The notes under the pieces are model-generated. The model saw nothing but the letters and a program-made list of their open reading frames with translations, did no database searches and was not told the DNA's origin. Positions 1-15,100 of a stretch of 16,524 nt of DNA are shown piece after piece. The DNA lies in the NCBI GenBank assembly GCA_025677825.1, contig JAIXMO010000128.1:1-16524 (forward strand), given 5' to 3'. This DNA comes from Helicostylum pulchrum (lineage: Eukaryota > Mucoromycota > Mucoromycetes > Mucorales > Mucoraceae). The position numbers and the translations under genes were made by a program. The first letter of the stretch is position 1; each line of letters starts with the position of its first letter.

Positions 1-430
1 ATTAAAACGTTTTATCAAATTATTTATGGAAGAAGAAATTTAAGCTGCTTTTACGACTTCGTAGCAAAATATCATTTATTCTACGATATTTTTTGTTTCT
101 AGCTATATGTAACGATACTGTAAATATAGCAAAATATAATTGCACTATACCTGAAGATTAATACGAACCTCTTTTATGAGTATACTTGAAATATAGCAAC
201 TAATTACATATATTGACTGTATGTACAGTAGAAATAATAATAATAGGTTATAAGTAATAGGTAATAAGGTAAAAGTGATAATAATAAGTGATTTGAAATG
301 ATAGAATTATGTAAGAAGATTATATCGACAGTTATATTGTTAAATTTGAATTGTATAAAATCGACTTTAATTAATTATTCTCGACAGGGACTAACTAGAA
401 CTGTAAATATCTTAACAACATTTTAAAGTT
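1..430. other. AT-rich flank without a gene
   Basis: No open frame with recognisable protein features is visible on either strand. The stretch holds simple AT-rich sequence, including a run of ATA/TAA repeats near 235-290. It lies 3' of the minus-strand transposase gene. I see no terminal inverted repeat that could mark the outer end of that transposon. Confidence 0.5.
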
Positions 431-440
431 TTTATTTATT
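431..440 (-). terminator. Poly(A) signal of the IS1595/Merlin-type transposase gene
   Basis: On the minus strand two overlapping AATAAA hexamers (431-436 and 435-440) follow the stop codon at 447-449 by only about 10 nt. This is the expected place for a short fungal 3' UTR. The call rests on motif and position only. Confidence 0.45.
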
Positions 441-949
441 GTTTATTTATAACAGTGTCATATTGGTTATTCTTATTCTTCTACTTCTTCTAACTACTCC
501 GAATGGAAGAATAGATTCATTATTCAATCTTCTTCTCTGCGAAGTATTTTCGTTGTTTGTGTTGGATCTTATATCACCAGTAACATCTTCCTCCACTAAG
601 TCACCGACATTTGTATCCTGACTCATAATATTCCGCGTAGTACTATAACTGGGAGGATAAGGACGATAATCATCGTCGTCGTCATCATTTTCTTCTTCGC
701 CATCTTCTTCGTCACTACTATAATCTGGAAGATCATCTTCTACGTCGGATTCAACATTTCCATATTCTGTATATACCGAGTTCTGTCTATCTCCTGGCAC
801 AAAATCAACTTCTCTTAACGACTTCATCATACCACCGAACAAGTCCCCGAAATACTTTCGTCTCCAAATAAATTCGAGAAGAACCCAGGGCATATTCTTT
901 TTGGTTCTTGAACGCGGGAAACAGCGAATTTTGACACCGTTCCAGGTAC

Positions 950-1022
950 CTAGTGTTCAAATTGATATATAATAAGTATTAAGGAAAAGTTATTTTTTTA
1001 ACTCTATAAGCAGTAGTATTAC
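950..1022 (-). other. Intron 3 of the transposase gene (73 nt)
   Basis: The donor is GTAATAC directly after ATTGAAG and the acceptor is ACACTAG. Splicing joins a split Gly codon and completes the conserved TIEGTW motif. It also links the catalytic core to the C-terminal FIWRRK segment. Without splicing the core frame stops at 979-981. Confidence 0.85.
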
Positions 1023-1352
1023 CTTCAATAGTATTGGTATGGGTTCCTTCTGAAGTTACGTACCCCTCTTCGTGATTAACAGCGCGATGCCCATAGAACA
1101 TCCCCCATTCAACAATACCGTTGTAGGCTCTCCAAAAATCAGTATGAATTATACTACCTGGGAGCACATGGTTAGTGATAATATTTTTCATAGTTTCCGC
1201 GTTTCGATTAGGTACGGTCATCATAAAGCACTTGCGTTCTGGGGTACGCTCAACACCACCAACTACCCAAACTCCTTCTACAGGATGACCATGGCTATAT
1301 TTACGTTTACCAAATTTACTTTCGTCTATCTCAACGATAACCCCGGGACCAC

Positions 1353-1417
1353 CTAAAAGATTATATGAGTAAAAATACAATAGAGTAAACTGTCTATGCT
1401 TAAGTTCAGCGTCTTAC
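1353..1417 (-). other. Intron 2 of the transposase gene (65 nt)
   Basis: The donor is GTAAGAC and the acceptor is CTTTTAG. Splicing joins a split Gly codon to give EIGGPGVIVEIDE, the conserved entry to the first catalytic Asp of ISXO2-like transposases. Confidence 0.88.
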
Positions 1418-1767
1418 CAATTTCGACGTCATGATCACCAATATCATTTTGCATAACCTGGTAAAAGTCCAACATAAGTTCACGAAGAGTCTGAGGATGT
1501 AACCGTGTAAGAACTGAGATCGTGTCACGAGAAGCCTTTGCTAACCAGTGATACAGGACAAGAAATTGTTTTGGTAAAGCTGTTTTTCTCCAAGAAAAGA
1601 AAGATCCGCTAAGAACTGATTCTCTAGACTTATTGCAACAGCCATGTCGCCCACAACGCCATAAGATACCCCTGTTGACATTGTATGTCAAAGACATAAT
1701 CTCGCCGTTACGACAAAGCATTCCTTGGTAAGACGCATCATAGAGAATACCTTCAGTAATAAGATAT

Positions 1768-1826
1768 CTGATATTTAATAGGTTTAGTTAACTTATAAGC
1801 AAATCAATATATTATTTATATTATAC
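1768..1826 (-). other. Intron 1 of the transposase gene (59 nt)
   Basis: The donor is GTATAATAT after TGCAG and the acceptor is ATATCAG. Splicing joins a split Arg codon (AG|A) and carries the N-terminal extension in frame into the zinc-ribbon region. The intron is AT-rich and contains an in-frame TAA, so the coding sequence cannot read through it. Confidence 0.8.
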
Positions 1827-2100
1827 CTGCAAGCTGTATCGTAGTCAACGACGTTGGCCTGAACTACTGACAATTCTGGAAGTCTAGAAGTTCTAATGGT
1901 ACTGTAGACAGGGAAGTTTACTTCAGTATCAAGTAAAGTACGTCTAGTTGGAATAGATCTATCCAATTGAACAATAGGCGAAGAAGTATTCGAATGAACT
2001 GGGCAACTTGCTTCATGATTTGAGTCCAAGGAAGGTGACGTAATGCTTGATGATGAATCCGAATCTTCAATCAAAATGCTTAAACTACGGCGTGCACCAG

Positions 2101-2521
2101 TGTGGAATCTGAGCTATGCAATAGTAAAGATTCAAAAATAAAATAAAAACACAAAAGATACAAGAAAGTAATCAGTCGCAAAAGCAGATAAAAGTTTTAT
2201 TTACGTGAAAAAGGTAGAGGTTTATATAGCTTTTTCATGTCTGAGTTTACAGATAAAATAAGTGTGTTTGTGCCACGCTAAAGTGCCACACTTTCCATAT
2301 CTAATTTCCTGCCGTGATTATATAATCCAGTCTTTCGGACAATACATGCAATTATGGAAGTCCTCTAATCCTGTATCCAGACATCAGTTATTACTGGGCG
2401 ATGTTGATAAGGCTTAGTTAAAATAAATATGTATTAGTCATAATGGTTAAAGCTGTGAGATAATCAAGTATGTGTAAATATATATGAGAATATATATCTG
2501 TATATATGCTTGATCACATCA
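2101..2521 (-). mobile_element. Solo LTR B (421 bp) inside transposase exon 1
   Basis: The segment is bounded by a perfect 5-bp direct duplication, ACCAG (2096-2100 and 2522-2526). Read on the minus strand it begins TGATGTGATC and ends GATTCCACA, giving LTR-type TG...CA ends. On that strand a TATA-like GCTATATAAAC (about 2220-2230) precedes AAATAAAAC, the order expected of U3, R and U5. Removing the segment and one duplicate restores the transposase frame. Its 5' part shares TATACAGATATATA, at nearly the same offset from the start, with the presumed LTR of element 2 at 11609, so it may be a relative. No internal retroelement sequence is present, which suggests LTR-LTR recombination. Confidence 0.82.
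2465..2517. repeat. Imperfect long palindrome in the U3 part of solo LTR B
   Basis: ATCAAGTATGTGTAAATA on one arm and TATATATGCTTGAT on the other form an imperfect inverted repeat with arms of about 25 bp around a central TGAGAA. Most of it is TA-rich, so some pairing is compositional. The ATCAAG/CTTGAT outer ends are not. Confidence 0.4.
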
Positions 2522-2644
2522 ACCAGGCATAGGAATATCAGAAGAGACAGGGGAAGCAGGACTCATATCAACTACAACAGGAGCAGGAGTTGCTTGACTC
2601 AAGCGAAAACGACGACTTGATACTTGGACTGGTTCAGCTGCAGG

Positions 2645-2940
2645 TGTGATAAATAGTATCAAATTAAAATAATAAAAGAGACAACAGTAAATAAGATGAA
2701 ACTTCTTATAGATCTTTATTGATTAAAATTACTTTTAAAAAACAAGAGAGGGAGCAAAAGGTTGCTCCTCTTAATATTCTTTTTATAGTCAAAGAACAAC
2801 CAGGGTAACATGACTGTTGTTTAAGGTGGTACAAGTAAATGGCTAAAATGTTAATTAGTACAATGGTATTGAGGTGTTACGTGAGAACCTCAATTATTTA
2901 AGGTACAGTCTCTTGCGTTAATTTATGGTAAAATACCACA
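2645..2940 (-). mobile_element. Solo LTR A (296 bp) inside transposase exon 1
   Basis: The segment is flanked by a perfect 5-bp duplication, GCAGG on the plus strand (2640-2644 and 2941-2945). Its plus-strand ends TGTGATA and TACCACA are near-perfect inverted repeats. Read on the minus strand it carries GACTATAAAAAG (about 2783-2793) followed by CAATAAAGATC (about 2712-2722), a TATA box and poly(A) signal in correct LTR order. Its first 40 nt (2940-2901, minus strand) are identical to 11570-11609 on the plus strand, just at the end of the element 1 pol frame. This ties it to a Ty3/gypsy LTR family active in this genome. Removing it with one duplicate restores the transposase frame. Confidence 0.88.
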
Positions 2941-3058
2941 GCAGGTACGGCAGACGTATTGACAGGCCCAGTAGAGTTAATGCGGAAGCGATTGTAAGAC
3001 ATTTTTGTTAAATAGAAGTAAGTATAATATTTGGGGGAAAAGTCGTAAAATACTCCCC

Positions 3059-3066
3059 TATTTATA
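3059..3066 (-). promoter_or_regulatory. TATA box of the transposase gene
   Basis: On the minus strand TATAAATA sits 57 nt upstream of the ATG at 3002, with AACAAAA directly before the start codon. The spacing fits a TATA-directed start about 30 nt downstream and a short leader. This supports 3002 as the true 5' end of the coding region. Confidence 0.6.
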
Positions 3067-3190
3067 CTTTTAAGGTCAAAAATTACTCGAAAATGACTCA
3101 TTTTTGAGCCAATCACCTTTACAGCAAAAGCTGCTAAGTTTCCCCGAGTCAGTTCTCCGAGTAAAAAAAAAAAAGAAACCTCAAAAATTG

Positions 3191-3316
3191 TTTTGGAACT
3201 ATGTTATACCACGGTTACACAAAATATGTTACACAAGAAAAATCGCCTTTTATAGTAATTTTTTATTGCTCTCAATTATCCCAGATCTAGCGGTGGCCAT
3301 ATATTAGCAAAGATCC
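3191..3316. repeat. Direct repeat copy 1 (126 bp)
   Basis: It matches 5333-5457 with two visible differences: one A fewer in the GAAAAATCGCC run of the other copy, and T/C at GATCTAGCGG. The right end joins the truncated Tc1 transposase frame abruptly at GGATC. The minus strand of the unit carries CTATAAAAGGC, a TATA-like motif, and a doubled TTGTGTAAC. I do not recognise the family; it could be a terminal repeat of a short non-autonomous element or a transposon end. Confidence 0.85.
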
Positions 3317-4246
3317 CAATACAGCTCCAAACCATAACACTACCACCACCGAGAAATGTTTTAGTTGCTATGACATAAGATGTTATCTTTTTATTGCTTA
3401 TAGTTAAATTATCTTATAAACTTAAAAATTGTTGTTATACAAAAAGACTTACAAATTCCAGACTTTTTTCAAATTCAGATTTTACGTCAGGCGCATAATG
3501 TATTTCTTTTCGTTTTTATACTGGTGGTTCATTAATTTTTACAGACACCATTTTTCTATCTATTATAAATTTAATTGTTAAATACAACTTTTTTCTTTAT
3601 TGCAACTTTTATATTAACGTTATTTTTTTTTGGAGTTTGTGTTTTTGTCTTTTTAAAAAGTTTAATCTTTGTATAAATATTACAGGTAACGTTTCTCACC
3701 ATGCTTTACTGTCTGATTTACTTGCTCTAGTCTAATACCTTCGTCGGATCTTTTGTAACACCAACTTACACCGTCTGAGCCAAAACGGTTAATTTTTGTC
3801 TCATCAGACCAAATAACATTTTTCCAGTCAATATCTGTCCAATCAACGCGGCTTTTACCGAATGCTAATCGCAATTTTCGATTGACAGGAGATATTTTAG
3901 GTTTGTTAGGTTTCTTAAAAGGGACAATACCTCTTGATTGAAGGTAACGACGAATAGAACGCGTACTTAATGAGATTCCTAGGTCATTTAATAGCAGTCT
4001 TGACAAAACAGTAGCTGATTGGACCTTTCCTTTGGTCACCTGATAAACCATAAAATCGATTGTAGATTTAGTAACTTTCATATTTCGCCCTTTTAATTGT
4101 ATATTTCTGTCGGGTAACTTTTCCTTTCCTATTTTAGCAACTGTTGACTTGCCTACCCCTGTTCTAGTTGAGGTTTCACGAACACTCATTCCGTTTGTTA
4201 AACATTGTACGACATTATTGATTTTGGAAGTAGACGTTTTTCGCAT
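3315..4246 (-). pseudogene. Tc1/mariner transposase, 3'-truncated and interrupted by a 347-bp insertion
   Basis: The N-terminal part reads from ATG 4246. It has a tandem helix-turn-helix DNA-binding region (about residues 3-42 and 58-105), a linker rich in Lys and Pro, and WSDET with the first catalytic Asp at residue 148. The frame runs to codon GGT 3700-3698. There a 347-bp insertion (3351-3697) breaks the conserved GGG-S-VMVW motif, which resumes at 3347. The rest reads VMVWSCIG and then runs into the 126-bp repeat at about 3316, where it soon stops. The second Asp and the final acidic residue are absent, so about the last third of a usual 330-350 aa protein is missing. No TIR pair for this copy was found. 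It is clearly non-functional. Confidence 0.88.
3351..3697. mobile_element. 347-bp non-coding inverted-repeat element (MITE-like) in the Tc1 transposase
   Basis: Plus-strand ends are GAGAAATGTT and AACGTTTCTC, an inverted repeat matching at 9 of 10 positions. ACC is duplicated on both sides (3348-3350 and 3698-3700). Leaving out the element and one ACC makes the Tc1 frame read H-G-G-G-S-V, the canonical motif, so the boundaries are well fixed. No coding potential is visible. A 3-bp duplication occurs in PIF/Harbinger and CACTA elements, but these ends match neither consensus that I know. Confidence 0.78.
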
Positions 4247-4320
4247 TTTGATAACTTGAAATTTTGGATATTACTTACTGTGAATATGTGTAGTTAATAT
4301 CTTACACTATGTTTGGTGTC

Positions 4321-4330
4321 ATTTTTTATA
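4321..4330 (-). promoter_or_regulatory. Possible TATA box of the Tc1 transposase
   Basis: TATAAAAAAT on the minus strand lies about 75 nt upstream of the ATG at 4246. In such AT-rich DNA the motif alone is weak evidence. Confidence 0.25.
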
Positions 4331-4361
4331 GCAATATTAAATATGTAGCCAAATTGTGGTT

Positions 4362-4592
4362 CAGAAAAAAAAAAAAAAAAAAGGGGCAGAAGTGTCCGCA
4401 TAGTATCTCTGACTTTAAACAAAGATTAATTTCGTTACTCCAACTCTAAACTTTGTGTGACATAACTTGTAAACGACAATATACAGGGCTTTCATATCGT
4501 ATAAACTTTGTCTGCTTTCGAAAATTATCTTAGCAACAATAAGCTGATATATTCAAAAGTCTGTAACATGCGGACACTTTTGCCGCATACTG
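4362..4592. mobile_element. Tc1/mariner-like MITE (about 210-230 bp)
   Basis: The right end, read inward, is CAGTATGCGGCAAAAGTGTC continuing CGCAT (4592-4568) and is followed by TA (4593-4594), the dinucleotide Tc1/mariner elements duplicate. An inverted copy lies at 4383-4401, with 17 of 19 positions matching. Each arm also contains a self-inverted ATGCGG/CCGCAT. The left terminus is degraded: a run of 18 A (4365-4382) replaces the expected outer bases and no TA is seen before CAG at 4362. There is no coding capacity. It adjoins the Tc1 gene, but its ends do not match that copy's left junction, so I treat it as separate. Confidence 0.65.
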
Positions 4593-4601
4593 TATATTTA
4601 A

Positions 4602-5457: not shown

Positions 5458-6317
5458 TTAGATGTAGCATGGTTTTTTCTTGGAGAAGAAACATGTAATC
5501 TTAGTTTAAGTTTATCAAATTTTGAATCGTCTGATTCCGTAGGAGGATACAAACGAGATAATGCATCGGGTAAAACGTTGTCTATTCCTTTTACGTGTAT
5601 TACAGAGAATTGGTAATCAAGCAATACGTCTAACCATTTTATGATCATACGATTAGCTGATTTTTGACTGAAAACATAACAAAGTGATTTGTGATCAGTA
5701 TATAAGGTAAAATGAGTACCCCAAATAAATTTATGAAATTGCTTTAGAGCGTAAATTACTCCGTTTAATTCTCTCATTGACGTAGAATATAGCCGTTCAT
5801 GTTTGTTAAATGTACGTGACATGAACCCAATATATTTAATTATAGACGCTTTTCCGTTATTGTTATCAACAGAATCAAACACTTGATAAAGTACACAACC
5901 GGTAGCAAAATCGCTTGAATCAGTAGCAATACAATATGGATGAGAATGATCAGGTTGAGACAACACTACATCAGACTGCATGATATTTTTTATCGCATCA
6001 AAGTGTATTTGATGTTTTGTAGTCCAAATGAAAGGACCACTTTTCTTAACATCATGAGATCTTAAGGCATCTAATGGAGCCATTAAGGCAGCAGCGTTTG
6101 GTATGTGCTGACGAAAGAAATCTACAAACCCTAATAGTGATTGAGCCTGTTTTTGTGTTTTTGGAGGAGGCATATCATCAAGGTTAGTCAGCTTTCTTTT
6201 ATCTATTCTTTTTCCAGAGGCAGAAATTGAATATCCTAAAAGGTATACGGCTGATTTAGCAAAATGTGATTTCTCGAAATTAATCCTTAAATTATTTTTA
6301 GTTAGTATTTCTTGTCG
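5445..6317 (-). pseudogene. Ty3/gypsy pol fragment: RT thumb and RNase H
   Basis: This is an internal slice of a retrotransposon polyprotein. On the minus strand the frame is open from about 6317, well before the internal ATG at 6173. It enters with RQEILTKNNLRINFEKSHF and LLGYSISASGKRIDKRKL, the end of the reverse transcriptase palm and thumb, followed by LLGFVDFFRQHIPNAA. RNase H follows with IATDSSDFATG (Asp), MRELNGVIYAL (Glu), LYTDHKSLCYV (Asp) and LPDALSRLYP (Asp), so all four catalytic acids are present. The RT active site, protease, gag and integrase are missing. The 3' side runs into the 125-bp repeat and stops at 5445-5447. The 5' side ends where the presumed 5' LTR of element 1 begins. 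It differs too much from elements 1 and 2 to be a copy of either. Confidence 0.85.
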
Positions 6318-6678: not shown

Positions 6679-9600
6679 ATGTCTAACTCTCAAGAACGTA
6701 CCGATACTCCTGTTTCTCTCAATAACGGTGAATCTGCTACTCCCACTGGTTCTCCTCTTTCTGAATATCAGCCCATGGAAGACGTTACCTCTGAAATCTC
6801 CATGACTGTATCTAGTGAAACCACGGATGATCTTATTCAAACCGCTCAAGCAAATTTGGAAACATTGAAGAATCAGTACTCTATTCTTTTTGGTCATTAT
6901 TTATCTTACCAACGTGTTAACCCTGATTCTGACAACACCAAGAATTCTTTTGCTATTTGTAAAGAAGCTGAACAAAAATATGTTGATGCCAAAACAGCTT
7001 TCTCTATCTTCAAGTCTATTCATAATCCCGTGAAAATGCAAGATGACAAGAAATTTTCGTTGGTTCCTTCAAGTCTTCCTTTCTTGCAACTCAAAACCGA
7101 TATTGTGTTGTATAAAAAAAATCATGAAGTCTTTGACTCCGTGTATGATTTTTGTACTCAATTTCAAACAGTATTGGAAGCTCATTCTTTGAGCATGAAT
7201 GACCATTGGGAAAGACTCCTTCCTATGTCTTTGAACAAAGAAGAAAGATCCTGGTTTGACGAGAAGTTAAGAAACAAGGCTTTTTCTTGGTCTGAGGCAC
7301 GTAATAAGATCTTGGATCACTTTGACACTCCCTATCGTAAATTCTTATTGATGGTGAAGGTCTGGAGCTTGAAGCAACAAGCTGGGGAATCTACTCGTTC
7401 TTATGCAGCAAAGTTTCAAAACTTAAGAAGACAAGCTGATCTTCACGACTGTCTTCAACTTGTACTTTGTTTTTGGTGTTCTCTTCGGGAACCTGTACGT
7501 CGTGTTGCATCCGTTGCAGTTTCTTCTCAGTATGGCAGCAAGTTACCTGGTAAAATCGAAGCCATGATTGATTTGGTTATTGCGTCCACCAATGACACCG
7601 ACTTGTTTTCCTCTTCCTCTTCTGGTATTTCGTCTGGCTTGTCTGGTGATAAGGGTAACAATGAGCGTCATTCACGTAAACGCAGTTCCCAATCTTTTTC
7701 TTCTGCTAGTAAAGACTATCAAAGGTCTAGTAAAGCATACCCTTCTTCGTCGTCGTCTTCTTCTGCTTCGAGTACTAGTAACAAACCTTGTAACTATTGT
7801 AAGGAACCTTGGTTCCAGGGACATCGTTGTGAAGCTTTTGTGAAAGCAAAGAAAATAAAGGTATCAAGAATGGCTCGTCGTAGTGACACTCCAGATACTA
7901 CTACTGATGAAGACAGTACTATGGAAGATGGTAACAATAGTAATGACGATGAAGACAATGAGCATCGTTTAGCTCAACTAGCTCTTGAATGTAAGTCTAA
8001 ACTAAAAAAAGATAAAAGAGTAAATAAAGTTGTGACTAATAACATAACCTTTCCTATTTTAATTAATAATTCTTATAGAACGACTGCTTTACTTGATTGT
8101 GGCGCTGTTTTCAGTTCAGTAGACGTGAAATTCTGTAAAGAAAATAAAATAAATATAAATTATATAAAACATATCAATAAAAACCTAGTTAATAAGAGTA
8201 ATCAATACAAATATTTTATAAAATTAGCGGATAATGATGTGTATACCAAAAGGATCGGAACTTGTACTTTAACAGTTAGCTGTAATAGTAAAACTCTAAA
8301 AAAAGAATTTGAAGTAATGAATTTAACCGATGATAATAACGAATTTTCGATAAGCATTGGTACTGATTATATGTCATCATTAGGCATGGGCATTTATGGT
8401 TTACCAACTTCATATGATGATCATGATTCCACTCAAGATGTCATTGAAGCTGATAGACGATATAACAATAAGAGCGAATTATTAGAAACAATTGATGCAG
8501 AAAACTCAGCTCGTGAAAAATGTCCTGCATGTGAGCCTAATGAATATAATGCAGCTATGGAATTTATAAACAAATATATAAAATTAAATCAATCCATTCC
8601 TAAAGGTGTATTCTGTACAGTACCTGAAAGTGTTGTATGTTTAGATACTCCTACTGATGTAACAGCATATAAAAAACCTTACCCAATTGCTTTAAAAATG
8701 CATAAGGTTATTGATGATCAGATAGCTGAATGGATTGACCTTGGTATTATTGAAAGAGCACCTGCTAACACTGAATGGAATACTCCTCTCACTGTTGTAA
8801 AGAAAACTGATGGCAAAGGAAATATAACAGGATATCGTGTATGTCATGACCCACGTCACATAAATGCTTTACTTAAAACAGTTGATAGAATGCCTTTACC
8901 AATAATCAGTGAGCTCTTTGAAGATTTAAAAGGTGCATCTGTTTATTCAACACTTGATTTGAAATCTGCTTTTAATTCTTTAAAATTAAATCCAGCCGAC
9001 TGTCATAAACTGGCGTTTACTTGGAAGGGTGTTCAATACCAACCTATTGGCACTGTCTTTGGTATTCGTCATGTAAGTTCTCAATTTCAAAGAACAATGA
9101 GCATTGTATTGGATGGTTTACCATTTGTAAGATACTTTGTTGATGACATTGTTTGCGCAAGCAATTCTGTTGACGAACATAAGGATCATCTTAAGCAAGT
9201 CATCCAAAGATTAACTGATGTAAACCTCAAGTTAAATCCGGCCAAATGCTGTCTATTTCAATCTGAAATTTATCTGCTTGGTTTTAGAATTTCACCACAA
9301 GGTATTAGTATGGATCGACGTAAACTAGTAAATGTCATTGAGTTTCCTACTCCCAAATCAGGACACGACATAATGAGGTACGCTGGGCTTATCAATTATT
9401 TCCGAAACTTAATTCCAAAAGTTTCAACTATGATGGCACCACTTGATAAATTAAGAAATGAAAAATCCCTTAATAAACTTTGGAATAATACACATCAAGC
9501 TGCTTTTGACAATCTGAAAAAAGCGCTCTTAAATGACGTTATTTTATCCTACCCTGGAAGGATATCTATGATCCCTTAATCAATTATTTTCAATAAATAT

Positions 9601-11587
9601 ATCTTTCTATATTCTCGGATATACTACATTTTTAAAATTAACATATCGTCTTTATATTCTATAGATATAAATAAATCAGAATTATATATATAAAATAAAT
9701 TATTTTATCACAAGAGCAAACCTTTTAGTTTTGGATAAAGATCAGCATTTTATTTATGATGTATTTTAAATAATGTTTTAATTTATAATATAAAAGGATA
9801 TCCGTCCTGATATGAATGCTCCCTTCTATATAAGTTGTGATGCTTCTCTAACAGGAATTGGATCAGCATTGTGGCAGAAAGTAGATGGTAAAATAAAGTA
9901 TATTTCTTTTATTGCAAAAAGCTTGTCAAAAAGTGAACGTAGATATTCTGCGTGTAAACGTGAGTTATTAGCTCTTGTTTTTTCTCTTAAACGTTTTCAC
10001 AAGTACATCTATGGTTCTGTATTTACACTATTCACAGACAATAAAGCTTTAACCTATATCCATACCCAACGTACGGCCAACCCTATGCTTGTTTCGTGGT
10101 TTGATACAATTCTCCAGTACGATTTTCGTATAATTCATTTACCTGGCATTGATAATATCTTACCTGATACTTTGTCCCGGTTATTTGAAACGCCTTCAAC
10201 CCAGTCAAATGAATTGGGTGGGGATAAAACATATAAAAATAAAATAGTAATGAGAAATAGTGCTGCTAGATTGGAAAACTTACCAAGTATAACTAGTGGT
10301 GAATATTTCACACCTCCTTCACAAAAAGAACGTGATGACCTTTTGAAACTTGAACACCTCAAGGGGCACTTCGGTGAGGAGGCATTAATAAACGCCATCA
10401 AAAGAAAAGGCATATACTGGACTAACATTAAAAAAGATGCAAATGAGTTGATACAAGCATGTGTTCAATGCCAACGTCATGTAATCACACGTAAGGGATT
10501 TAACCCATTAAGACCTGTACTTGCAACACTTCCTGGTGAAGCATGGGGAATTGATCTCACTGGTCCTTTCATTTGTTCTAAACAAGGTAATCAGTATTTG
10601 TTAGTAATGATAGACATAGCTTCAAAATATTACGTTTTAAAAGCTATACCAGATAAATCAGCTACGACTGTTTGTAATGAACTATTAAACGTGATTTGCA
10701 CTTTTGGTCCATTTAAAAAACTACAGAGCGATCATGGTTCCGAATTCGTCAATAAAATAATGACTACAATCAGAAAGCACATTGCGTTTGATCATGCTTT
10801 AATTTCTGTGTACCATTCAAGAAGTAATGGCGCTTCAGAAAGAGCTGTTCAATCTGCTGTTAAGACCATAAAAAAACAAATAAATGGTAATGTTGCCGAT
10901 TGGGACTGTAAGGTTGCTCCAACACAGCTATTCTTAAATAGCAAGTATAATATAAGAACAAAAAGTACTCCATTCTCGTTAATGTTCGGCAGGAATCCAA
11001 ATGACTTCGAAGACTTTAGTCAGGAAAAAGATATAAAAGCAACGCGTAAAATAAATGACGATCTACACAATAAGATACGTCACATGACGGAGATTGTTTA
11101 TCCTGCTATATATGAACAAGTAAAACAGGTCACAGAGAAGCAGAAATCTAAATTTGATGCCAAACATAAAATGATTGACATTCCTAATGGCTCAAAAGTA
11201 ATGATTTTAATAACTGACAGACAAAGTAAATTAGATCCACATTATAAGGGTTATTATACTACTGTTAGAAAAACTGCAGCTGGCACATATGTACTTAAAA
11301 ATGAACAAGGATTTCTTGAACCAAGAAATTATCCTCCTTCACTACTAAAAGTAACATCAAATAATATAATTAAAGATGATAATTATTTTGAAGTTGAGGC
11401 AATTATAGGTCATAAATATGACAAGAATAAAAACAGTTACCTATATAAATGTAAGTGGTTAAATTATGATGAATCCTTTAATTCCTGGGAGCCACCTTCT
11501 AACTTCACAGATCCTAAATTCATAACTGAATACTGGCGAAGAATTGGTGAAATCCCTGAAAGTATAACTTGTGGTATTTTACCATAA
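6679..11587 (+). pseudogene. Element 1 gag-pol polyprotein with chromodomain, broken by a 250-bp insertion
   Basis: ATG 6679 (context ACCAAAATG) was chosen over the in-frame GTG at 6661. Gag occupies about residues 1-400, with a Ser-rich stretch and one zinc knuckle CX2CX7HXC (371-384). The protease-like site reads LDCGA (Asp 473), with Cys where Thr or Ser is usual. RT has DLKSAFNSLKL, the GTVFGIRHVSSQFQRTM region and FVDD (820-823). The frame stops at 9577-9579, inside the insertion 9557-9806, and resumes from about 9807. RNase H then shows SCDAS, KRELLALV, FTDNKAL and LPDTLSRL. Integrase has an HX3H...CX2C finger and DX35E (D at 10553 and 10730, E at 10838). A chromodomain (about 11383-11535, VEAIIGHKY to WLNYDESFNSWEPPSNF) closes the protein. 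Both halves otherwise lack stops, so this insertion is the only visible lesion apart from the odd protease. Gag and pol share one frame, as in Tf1-type elements. Confidence 0.9.
9557..9806. mobile_element. 250-bp non-coding inverted-repeat element (MITE-like) in element 1 pol
   Basis: The left end GAAGGATATC (9557-9566) and right end GATATCCGTC (9797-9806) are inverted repeats matching at 9 of 10 positions. CTG is duplicated outside (9554-9556 and 9807-9809); CCTG (4 bp) is an equally possible reading. The RT side is in frame 1 and the RNase H side in frame 2. The net 253-bp gain accounts exactly for that shift. The interior is extremely AT-rich with no coding frame. Solo-LTR origin is unlikely because there are no TG...CA ends. 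Confidence 0.75.
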
Positions 11588-11609
11588 ATTAACGCAAGAG
11601 ACTGTACCT
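11570..11609 (+). repeat. Start of element 1 3' LTR (40 bp), interrupted
   Basis: Forty nucleotides beginning TGTGGTATTTTACC are identical to the first 40 nt of solo LTR A. The last six codons of the element 1 pol frame (stop 11585-11587) lie inside it. After 11609 the sequence no longer follows solo LTR A, which continues TAAATAATTGAGG. Another TGTTG LTR-like start appears at that point. This fits truncation by insertion of element 2. Confidence 0.72.
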
Positions 11610-12196: not shown

Positions 12197-15100
12197 ATGT
12201 CTATTCCTACTCAAAACTTTATCGGTCCTGTTGCTCCTCCTGCTACTAGAATGGAAGATGTTGAATTTTCTGCCGAAACTGCTCCCAATGTTAGTTCTAC
12301 TCCTGTTGCTAGTCCTAAGGCTCCTGTCTGTCTTCCTCGTGGTGCTGGTTCTGACCCTGCTGCTGGTTTGCAAGTCAGTATTTCCTTACTCCATGAAGAA
12401 ATTGTTTCATTGTATGCTCTTATTGCTTCTAGTAATGGTACTACTGATGAATTAAGAAGTTACCGTGAGAAAGTAAGTAAAAAAATGGGGGATTTAGACC
12501 AGCTCGGTAGGGCTCAGAAGTTGATTCAGGCTACGGCCGGCAGTACACTTGCAGGTGCCAAGTTGTCGAATGTAGTACCTCGTAATCTTCCTCTGTTTCA
12601 ATGGGAAAACCAGGTCTCTGTACCAGGTGCTCCTGTTTTCGTGGATGTAAACACTTGCATCATGAATTTTACTGATGTTATGATTAGTCATAACTTAGAT
12701 TTGGATGCTAATTACCTTCGGGTATTACCTCCTCTTCTTGCTGGAACTATTCGTCTTTGGTTTGAAGATTTTGTGACACAATTTAGAAAATTGTACCAAC
12801 AAGATCCTTCTTGGATTCAGTTCTCCACTGCCATGCAAGATCGCTATGGTCTTAACGTGCAGGAAGAACGTAACAACTGTGCTAGGGAATTAAACAGTAT
12901 TATGATGTATGAAGGCGAGAACCTCGAATCGTTCATTGATAGATTCAATAGTTTGAGACGCCGTGCGGTAGATCAAGTATTACCCAATTCATTATTAATC
13001 GAACGTTTTCTTCTTGCTTTGCCTCGAAAGGTTGCTGAATATATCAACGTTGCTATTGTCAATCTTCCTGAATACAAGCGACAAGATATTGAAGTTCTTT
13101 CAGATTTGGCCCGCCGATTGCAAAACAGTACTTTGTTTACTATGCGTGCTAATACCATGGTTGCCCCTTTGATGCCTCCTCGTGCTCCTAAGCGTTCTGC
13201 CATGCACATTGATCAAAATGATGCTGTACACAGATCTTCGAATAGATCTAGGCATGCTACCAATTTGGCTCGTGCTGCTGCGCCCACTGGTACCACTACT
13301 GGTGAATCTTCCTCTTCTGCTGCTGTTTCTGTTGTGACCCAACCAACTGACAAGTATTGTACCTTCCACAAGGCTAAGTCTCACAATACTAGTGAATGTC
13401 GTGCTGCTGCTGCTGCTGGTACCAATGTGAAACCCCGGGTGAAATATTGCCATGGCTGTGGTGTCGCCGGTTGGAACCCTCGACACGAGTGCGCTACTGC
13501 AAAACGTACGTCTCCTCCTCTTCCTCCTAATACTAATCAAGAGTATAACTTTGGTGCGATGACCTTGCAACAAGGTAGCAATGTTGTTGGCCCTGCCAAT
13601 ACTTCTTCTGCTGTTCCTTCTGTTCCTTCTGTTCCTTTTGTTCCTTCTGCTGTCTCTTCTGCTTCGGTTACGACTTCGCGTGCTGAATTACAGGCAGCAT
13701 ACAATGCTGGTGTTGCTGACGCCACTGCGGATATACAGGAATTATCCATTGCTGATGATGAAGATGTCATCATGGATATACAAGCCCAGAATTGTAAGTA
13801 TCATAACGTATTTAGTTCTTTACCAGAAAATAAGTCTAACATGATCATAATTCCTATTATTATTCAGAATATTAAAACGTATGCCATTGTTGATACTGGT
13901 GCTACTTTTAGCATGGTGTCTCCTTCTTTTTCGACTTTTTTGGGTGGTGATATCAAGGTAGTTCCTTCCAAAGGTACTATCCAACTTGGCCATTCTGAAG
14001 CAGTAGTTAACAGATCTGGTTCTACAATTTTAAACATCTATTATAATAAAAAGGTTTTAAAACACAATTTCGAGATTTTTTCTTTCTTTACAAGTAAAAA
14101 TAACAGTACCATACCTATATTGATTGGACTTGATTTAATAAGTAAACTTAACATTGGTATCACTGGTTTAGCACTTAGTCATACAGAACTTGCAGCTGAT
14201 AACCCTTTTTCCGATCCTCCTATTGATCCTTCTATTTCTGAACCTAATAACAGTCCTTATGGTACTATAGAAGAAAGAATTGAAATGGAAAAGTTATTAG
14301 AGCCTGTACTTCTTGCTAATAAGAATATTGATGTTAAAAACACTTACTGTACACTACCTGGAGCTATTGTATACCTTGAAACCAAACCTGGTTGTATTGC
14401 TTATCGTAAAAGTTATAGTCTTCCTTTAGCATATAAGGAGAAAGTAGCTGAGCAACTACAAATTTGGCAGGATGATAATGTAATTGAACCTGTTTCAACT
14501 TATAATGGGTTTAATTCTCCTTTATTGGTAGTCGGAAAAAAAGATACTTCTGGCAAAATATCTAAAGAGAAAATTAGATTAGTTACAGATGTCAGAAATC
14601 TTAATGCTTTACTTACTGAAACTGATACACAACGATTTCCTTTGATTTCGGAAATCCATCAGAAGTTGGGGATGTCTAAAATTCATACTGTACTTGATAT
14701 TAAGGCATGCTTCAATAGTTTCATGATAGCAAAAGAACACAGACACAAACTTGCTTTTACAGACGTCTTTACAAACAAGCAATGGCAATACAAGAAAGCA
14801 CCATTTGGGATTTCTTTCATTGGGAACCTTGTACAAAGAGTTTTACAAGATTTGTTTAGCGACTTAGATTACATACAAGTCTACGTTGATGATTTGACAA
14901 TTAGCACAAGTGATACTTTACGCCATCATACAGATTGTGTTGCTGAGGTTATTCGTAGATTAACTAAGCACAATTTAATGATTGCTACTGAGAAAATGGT
15001 TTTTGCTCAACAAGCTATCTTTATTTTGGGTTGGACAATTCAGAATGGTGCTATGGTTCCAGATCATCGTAAGGTCAATACGGCATACGAGTTTGAAATT

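What the first reader, a model, noticed from the sequence alone, without database searches (positions are those of the whole stretch)
447..3002. A four-exon transposase gene hit twice in its first exon by solo LTRs, with the frame fully recoverable
Seen directly: two segments with TG...CA ends (2101-2521 and 2645-2940), each bounded by a perfect 5-bp duplication (ACCAG, GCAGG), lie within 550 bp of one exon. Excluding them with one duplicate each, and three GT-AG introns, leaves exactly 1632 nt with no internal stop across all six pieces. This is an unusually clean record of a cellular-style gene killed by LTR insertions. Gene callers would report four or five unrelated small ORFs here. The absence of other lesions suggests the insertions are recent.
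Basis: partly seen in the sequence, partly recalled or inferred. Interest (0 to 1): 0.75.

Follow-up and report, generated by a model that had tools for sequence, protein, structure and literature searches.

The report
Merlin transposase split by solo LTRs
A jumping-gene enzyme gene in a fungus was broken by the leftover ends of other jumping genes; the record is unusually clear and recent, but this kind of event is ordinary in repeat-rich DNA.

Summary
On the minus strand, 3002-447, six pieces (62+118+269+350+330+503 = 1632 nt) stay in frame with no internal stop, three GT-AG introns excluded, and two TG...CA segments carry perfect 5-bp duplications. Both are genuine LTRs: each family has a full-length element in this genome with paired LTRs and matching 5-bp TSDs, and 14 of 30 fetched LTR1 loci are TSD-flanked solos. 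A 99%-identical copy (contig C28) lacks LTR1, with one ACCAG and an open frame across the site. For LTR2 no copy found covers the site, and its place inside the coding part is only probable. The gene is not cellular. It is the transposase of a Merlin (IS1595-like) DNA transposon: Pfam domain, invariant D, D and E, GG-ended terminal repeat at 3183-3316. Merlin is already reported in Mucoromycota (PMC8101967, PMC7928374; passages). Another Merlin-like gene (C50) is also split by a solo LTR1. The insertions are recent. The case is clean but ordinary transposon-on-transposon decay.

The parts
3183..3316 (-). 5' terminal inverted repeat of the Merlin element; outer end reads GGATCTTTGCTAATATATGG on the gene strand (inner limit not defined)
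   Evidence: 97% match behind the gene in C28 (2936-3061) and C69 (1990-2115), in opposite sense relative to the gene; same outer end at window 5458, C28:3126 and C23:15303 with different flanks
2941..3002 (-). exon 1, first part (ATG at 3002), up to the LTR2 insertion
   Evidence: coding status weak on its own (1062 of 2000 shuffles also open)
2645..2940 (-). solo LTR2 (296 bp), same sense as the gene; TSD GCAGG at 2640-2644 and 2941-2945
   Evidence: 44 matches counting partial ones, 9 at the top score over all 296 bases including this one; full-length element C9:5051-12688 with TSD TGCAT
2522..2639 (-). exon 1, second part, between the two LTRs
   Evidence: 248 of 2000 shuffles open; the equivalent of 2522-2597 runs straight into the third part in C28
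2101..2521 (-). solo LTR1 (421 bp), same sense as the gene; TSD ACCAG at 2096-2100 and 2522-2526
   Evidence: site without it in C28
1827..2095 (-). exon 1, third part
   Evidence: 14 of 2000 shuffles open
1768..1826 (-). intron 1, GT-AG, 59 bp
   Evidence: site sequences present in C28
1418..1767 (-). exon 2
   Evidence: 4 of 2000 shuffles open
1353..1417 (-). intron 2, GT-AG, 65 bp
   Evidence: site sequences present in C28
1023..1352 (-). exon 3, catalytic core DDE_Tnp_IS1595
   Evidence: (59.7 bits, cut-off 27, frame 979-1413)
950..1022 (-). intron 3, GT-AG, 73 bp, inside the codon right behind the invariant Glu; 2 of 10 fungal relatives aligned change at the same place
   Evidence: both sites present in C28, the acceptor also in C69
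447..949 (-). exon 4, end of the transposase region and an acidic tail, stop at 447-449
   Evidence: 0 of 2000 shuffles open

Best explanation
Window 1-3316 is roughly the 5' three quarters (judged from the C28 copy) of a Merlin (IS1595-like) DNA transposon of a Mucoromycota-like fungus, with a four-exon transposase gene on the minus strand and its 5' terminal repeat at 3183-3316. Two LTR retrotransposons of different families inserted into it, each duplicating 5 bp, and each later lost its interior by LTR-LTR recombination, leaving solo LTRs of 421 and 296 bp in the same sense as the gene. This split exon 1 and ends translation 34 codons from the ATG. Shown: frame, TSDs, LTR families with full-length members, and a copy without LTR1. 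Inferred: that LTR2 lies within coding sequence, that interiors were lost by recombination, that the introns are spliced, and that the gene is inactive. It is one layer in a nest of transposons hitting transposons.
For: Frame and introns; TSDs. Copy without LTR1: window 1-2100 and 2522-2597 match C28 2177-72 and 76-1, sharing 5 bp, the single ACCAG; C28 reads 112 codons open across the site. LTR1 full-length elements C28:5394-15751 (TSD ACGAT) and C9:12993-23335 (TSD TTCCT), 0 differences between the two LTRs in each. LTR2 full-length element C9:5051-12688, TSD TGCAT, 1680-aa frame. DDE_Tnp_IS1595. D126, D188 and E226 invariant in 12 of 12 aligned rows. Terminal repeat ends. A sister Merlin family of 1909 bp shows exact 8-bp TSDs in 13 of the 13 loci L003-L020 that gave both ends, 12 distinct targets (my reading of the printed flanks).
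Against: No complete copy of this element was found: C33 and C28 stop at opposite contig ends and C69 has only the 3' part, so its own TSD could not be read. No copy found covers the LTR2 site. C28 could be an allele or assembly variant of the window locus and not a paralogue. C28 shows 4 single-base insertions in exons, probably artefacts. The first two pieces of exon 1 are not significantly open by shuffling. The terminal 8 bases of the 3' repeat in C28 and C69 differ from the 5' one.
Confidence: 0.9

Rival explanations
1. LTR1 breaks the coding exon, but translation normally starts further in (a Met lies in the piece between the LTRs), so LTR2 lies in the 5' leader and only one insertion hits coding sequence. 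This changes one part of the best explanation only.
For:: the two pieces around LTR2 are open in 1062 and 248 of 2000 shuffles. No relative found covers this stretch; the N-termini of fungal relatives look different.
Against: GC of both pieces (0.51, 0.47) is above that of 3003-3182 (0.33); frame and phase continue exactly to the ATG at 3002.
Confidence: 0.25
2. C28 and C33 are two assembled versions of one locus (alleles), so the LTR1 insertion is a polymorphism at one site and not a paralogue comparison. LTR1 is still an insertion.
For: C28 and C33 end at opposite contig ends, so no shared flank separates them. C67 and C69 hold a sister Merlin in the same target, so allelic or duplicated contigs exist. 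C28 seems to mix bases of two copies.
Against: In the stretch shared by the three copies, differences are alike: window-C69 7 of 990, C28-C69 7 of 992, window-C28 6, which fits three separate copies.
Confidence: 0.3
3. The LTRs are not dead weight: lying in sense, LTR1 supplies a promoter for an N-truncated transposase from exon 2 on.
For: Both LTRs are in the sense of the gene, judged by the long frames of their full-length elements; the catalytic exons downstream have no stop.
Against: No transcript data; no Met in the third part of exon 1, so a start would lie in exon 2; the lost part may be needed.
Confidence: 0.06
4. A domesticated cellular gene, kept by selection until the LTRs killed it.
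For: Introns, a long N-terminal region and an acidic tail; frame intact outside the LTRs.
Against: Terminal repeat next to the gene; further copies, with different downstream flanks in C28 and C69; 6 replacement to 3 silent substitutions between window and C28 coding parts, so no sign of purifying selection, though n is small.
Confidence: 0.03

Closest known systems
Merlin superfamily of DNA transposons (IS1016/IS1595-related), reported in Mucoromycota (PMC8101967, PMC7928374, PMC5982828; passages)
   Same: DDE_Tnp_IS1595 domain, invariant D, D and E, terminal repeat starting GG, no zinc domain found in the parts scanned, host lineage by best named hits
   Different: Three introns and a long acidic tail (the word intron does not occur in the main text of PMC8101967). 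TSD of this copy unreadable
Solo LTRs of LTR retrotransposons (likely Ty3/gypsy)
   Same: TG...CA ends, 5-bp TSD, full-length relatives in the same genome
   Different: Nothing essential; two families lie within 550 bp of one exon
Compact Merlin family in the same genome (1909 bp, 302-aa open frame)
   Same: 44% identical over most of the exon 3 frame; a diverged relative in C50 is also split by a solo LTR1
   Different: One open frame of 302 aa, other terminal sequences, many near-identical copies

Membership tests
Merlin superfamily | DDE_Tnp_IS1595 domain | tested here: met
   Searches (59.7 bits; 60.4 bits), cut-off 27
Merlin superfamily | conserved DDE catalytic residues | tested here: met
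   D126, D188, E226 invariant in 12 of 12 rows; that these are the catalytic ones is recalled
Merlin superfamily | terminal inverted repeats beginning 5'-GG | tested here: met
   the 5' end is in the window, the 3' end only in copies C28 and C69, whose last 8 bases differ but also begin GG; the 3' boundary is my reading
Merlin superfamily | 8- or 9-bp target site duplication | not testable with these tools
   no copy of this element found with both ends on one contig; the sister family shows 8 bp in 13 of 13 loci with both ends
Merlin superfamily | no Zn_Tnp_IS1595 domain | tested here: met
   none in the third part of exon 1 or in exons 2-4; the first two parts of exon 1 were not scanned
solo LTR | TG...CA ends, 5-bp TSD and no interior | tested here: met
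solo LTR | same sequence as the paired LTRs of full-length elements | tested here: met
solo LTR | empty site without the insertion | tested here: inconclusive
   met for LTR1; no copy found covers the LTR2 site
Ty3/gypsy origin of the two LTRs | gag-pol with RT and RNase H before integrase | not tested
   hints only: the LTR2 element matches window 5458-6312, whose frame holds RT_RNaseH; the LTR1 element resembles window 12674-13024, 67% over 355 bp; no domain scan of either interior

The most novel reading that the evidence does not exclude
The sense-oriented LTR1 acts as a new promoter, turning a full-length Merlin transposase into an N-truncated one with intact catalytic exons, so that retroelement decay creates a transposase variant or repressor.
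Probability: 0.06. Interest if true: 0.5.

Novelty: new member of a known kind. Interest (0 to 1): 0.22.

Why it matters
It is a fresh, readable example of retroelements breaking a DNA transposon, with an LTR1-free copy in the same genome. It may help annotation: a fungal Merlin transposase can have introns, and 2 of the 10 fungal relatives aligned change exactly where intron 3 sits here, one by extra residues and one by breaking off.

Tried and rejected
Looked for a complete copy of this Merlin element to read its TSD: none found, the three copies end at contig ends. Looked for an LTR2-free copy: none found; C28 ends about 43 bases short of the site. These genome searches score only the best candidates, so absence is not proof. 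Considered LTR2 as a spliced intron by looking at its joints; not computed, dropped. Considered domestication: see rivals. Paper searches: searches gave listings; PMC8101967, PMC7928374 and PMC5982828 were seen as found passages only. I made no search to show that nobody has described this locus. The one protein search listed 120 of 1471 hits; 11 of them were aligned with the query: ten fungal (P0001, P0003, P0004, P0005, P0006, P0007, P0009, P0010, P0032, P0098) and one metagenomic (P0020).

One search also added the second side of the full-length LTR1 element.

Full report
Setting. The window is the whole of contig C33 (16,524 bp) of a 32.2-Mb genome in 168 contigs. Named best protein matches are Mucor, Rhizopus, Choanephora, Parasitella and Lichtheimia, so the host is most likely a Mucoromycota fungus (inference). 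Many of the near-identical transposon copies lie on small contigs of about 10-33 kb.

The observation. Every coordinate of the finding that I tested checks out. The frame is no accident for exons 2 to 4 and the third part of exon 1: at most 14 of 2000 shuffles stay open. For the two short pieces around LTR2 it is weak (1062 and 248 of 2000), although their GC content is coding-like.

The gene. The frame around exon 3 carries DDE_Tnp_IS1595 (exons 2-4 together). The alignment with 11 relatives keeps three acidic residues in all 12 rows. Intron 3 lies inside the codon right behind the invariant Glu. Of the 10 fungal rows aligned, two change at that very place: the Choanephora model (P0005) reads extra residues there and the Mucor hiemalis model (P0010) breaks off. 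The other eight run through it. This fits a shared intron in some relatives but does not prove it. The element's 5' terminal repeat is at 3183-3316; its counterpart lies behind the gene in C28 and C69, in the opposite sense relative to the gene. The outer end GGATCTTTGC occurs at four places with four different flanks: window 3316, window 5458, C28:3126 and C23:15303. In C28 and C69 the repeat behind the gene ends GGTTAAAAGC instead (the boundary is my reading). A sister Merlin family of 1909 bp in the same genome has exact 8-bp TSDs in 13 of the 13 loci L003-L020 that gave both ends, at 12 distinct targets; two more gave one end only. Merlin in Mucoromycota is in print: PMC8101967 lists Rhizopus, Lichtheimia and Phycomyces and gives GG ends and 8- or 9-bp TSDs (passages); PMC7928374 reports it in sequenced Mucorales (passage) and PMC5982828 in Rhizopus genomes (passage).

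LTR1. The genome search gave 44 matches, partial ones included, with 40 of 71 candidates scored. Of 30 fetched loci, 14 have equal 5-bp flanks, the window among them, so they are solos. Four loci are the paired LTRs of two full-length elements (C28, TSD ACGAT; C9, TSD TTCCT). The other 12 show no equal 5-bp flanks; several are cut short or end at contig ends (pairing from the positions and the flanks). In both full-length elements the two LTRs are identical. The window's LTR1 differs by 4 bases from its nearest copies, with 1 change private to it among 11 near copies. The C28 copy of the gene shows the site without LTR1 and reads open across it for 112 codons.

LTR2. The search gave 44 matches, partial ones included, nine of them at the top score over all 296 bases, the window's own among them. 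A full-length member lies at C9:5051-12688 with TSD TGCAT and a 1680-aa frame; its two LTRs match the window's at 99.7 and 100%. On the gene strand the first 40 bases of LTR2 are also at 11570-11609 of the window, where another retroelement begins. The identity of the copies points to a very recent insertion. No second copy of the gene was found to reach this site.

Lesions and selection. Between window and C28 there are 9 coding substitutions, 6 replacement and 3 silent: few, and without sign of selection on the protein. C28 also has 6 single-base insertions relative to the window, 4 of them in exons. At the 2 sites that C69 covers, C69 has a substitution where C28 shows both bases side by side, so the insertions look like an assembly that merged two copies. 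If real, they would mean that the LTR1-free copy is itself broken. Either way the window copy has no lesion in frame apart from the LTRs.

Nested context. The pattern is general here. C50 holds another Merlin-like gene split by a solo LTR1 with TSD CTCCT in its catalytic part. The full-length LTR1 element of C28 sits in a relative of the window's own retroelement, at the equivalent of 7823-7827: one side matches window 7823-9556 at 98.7%, the other window 7827-6316 at 82%. It carries two compact Merlins itself. Two solo LTRs in one exon are thus not surprising in this DNA.

Verdict. A correct and careful observation, correctly read as solo LTRs in a transposase gene, but not a cellular gene and not a new kind of event. 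Open points are the LTR2 empty site, the true start codon, and whether C28 and C33 are paralogues or alleles.

Noticed in passing
window 11570-11609 and 11609 onward: The first 40 bases of an LTR2-type LTR end abruptly where another retroelement begins (98% match to C23 from exactly 11609): a retroelement inserted into the LTR of another.
   Followed up: partly
window 9557-9804: About 248 bp present here and absent from the C28 copy of the same pol region, with about 5 bp shared at the joint: another small insertion.
   Followed up: partly
window 3317-4598 and C18:12389-13318: A Tc1-like element (frame 3680-4270) found in several contigs carries about 346 extra bases here (3351-3696); the Merlin element of the finding abuts it.
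   Followed up: partly
G000 contigs C9, C20, C28, C37, C42, C43, C48, C50, C63, C69 and others; L003-L016: A compact 1909-bp Merlin with a 302-aa transposase frame and a second frame of about 282 aa of unknown kind, in near-identical copies with exact 8-bp TSDs: probably active lately.
   Followed up: partly
L007 (C69) and L018 (C67): The same compact Merlin insertion with the same flanks in two contigs: allelic or duplicated contigs in this assembly.
   Followed up: no
window 2051-2086, near the start of the third part of exon 1: The stretch SLSILIEDSDSS resembles a SUMO-interacting motif (recalled); similar stretches in 2 of 3 fungal relatives whose N-termini were printed (P0003, P0010; not clearly P0006).
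   Followed up: no
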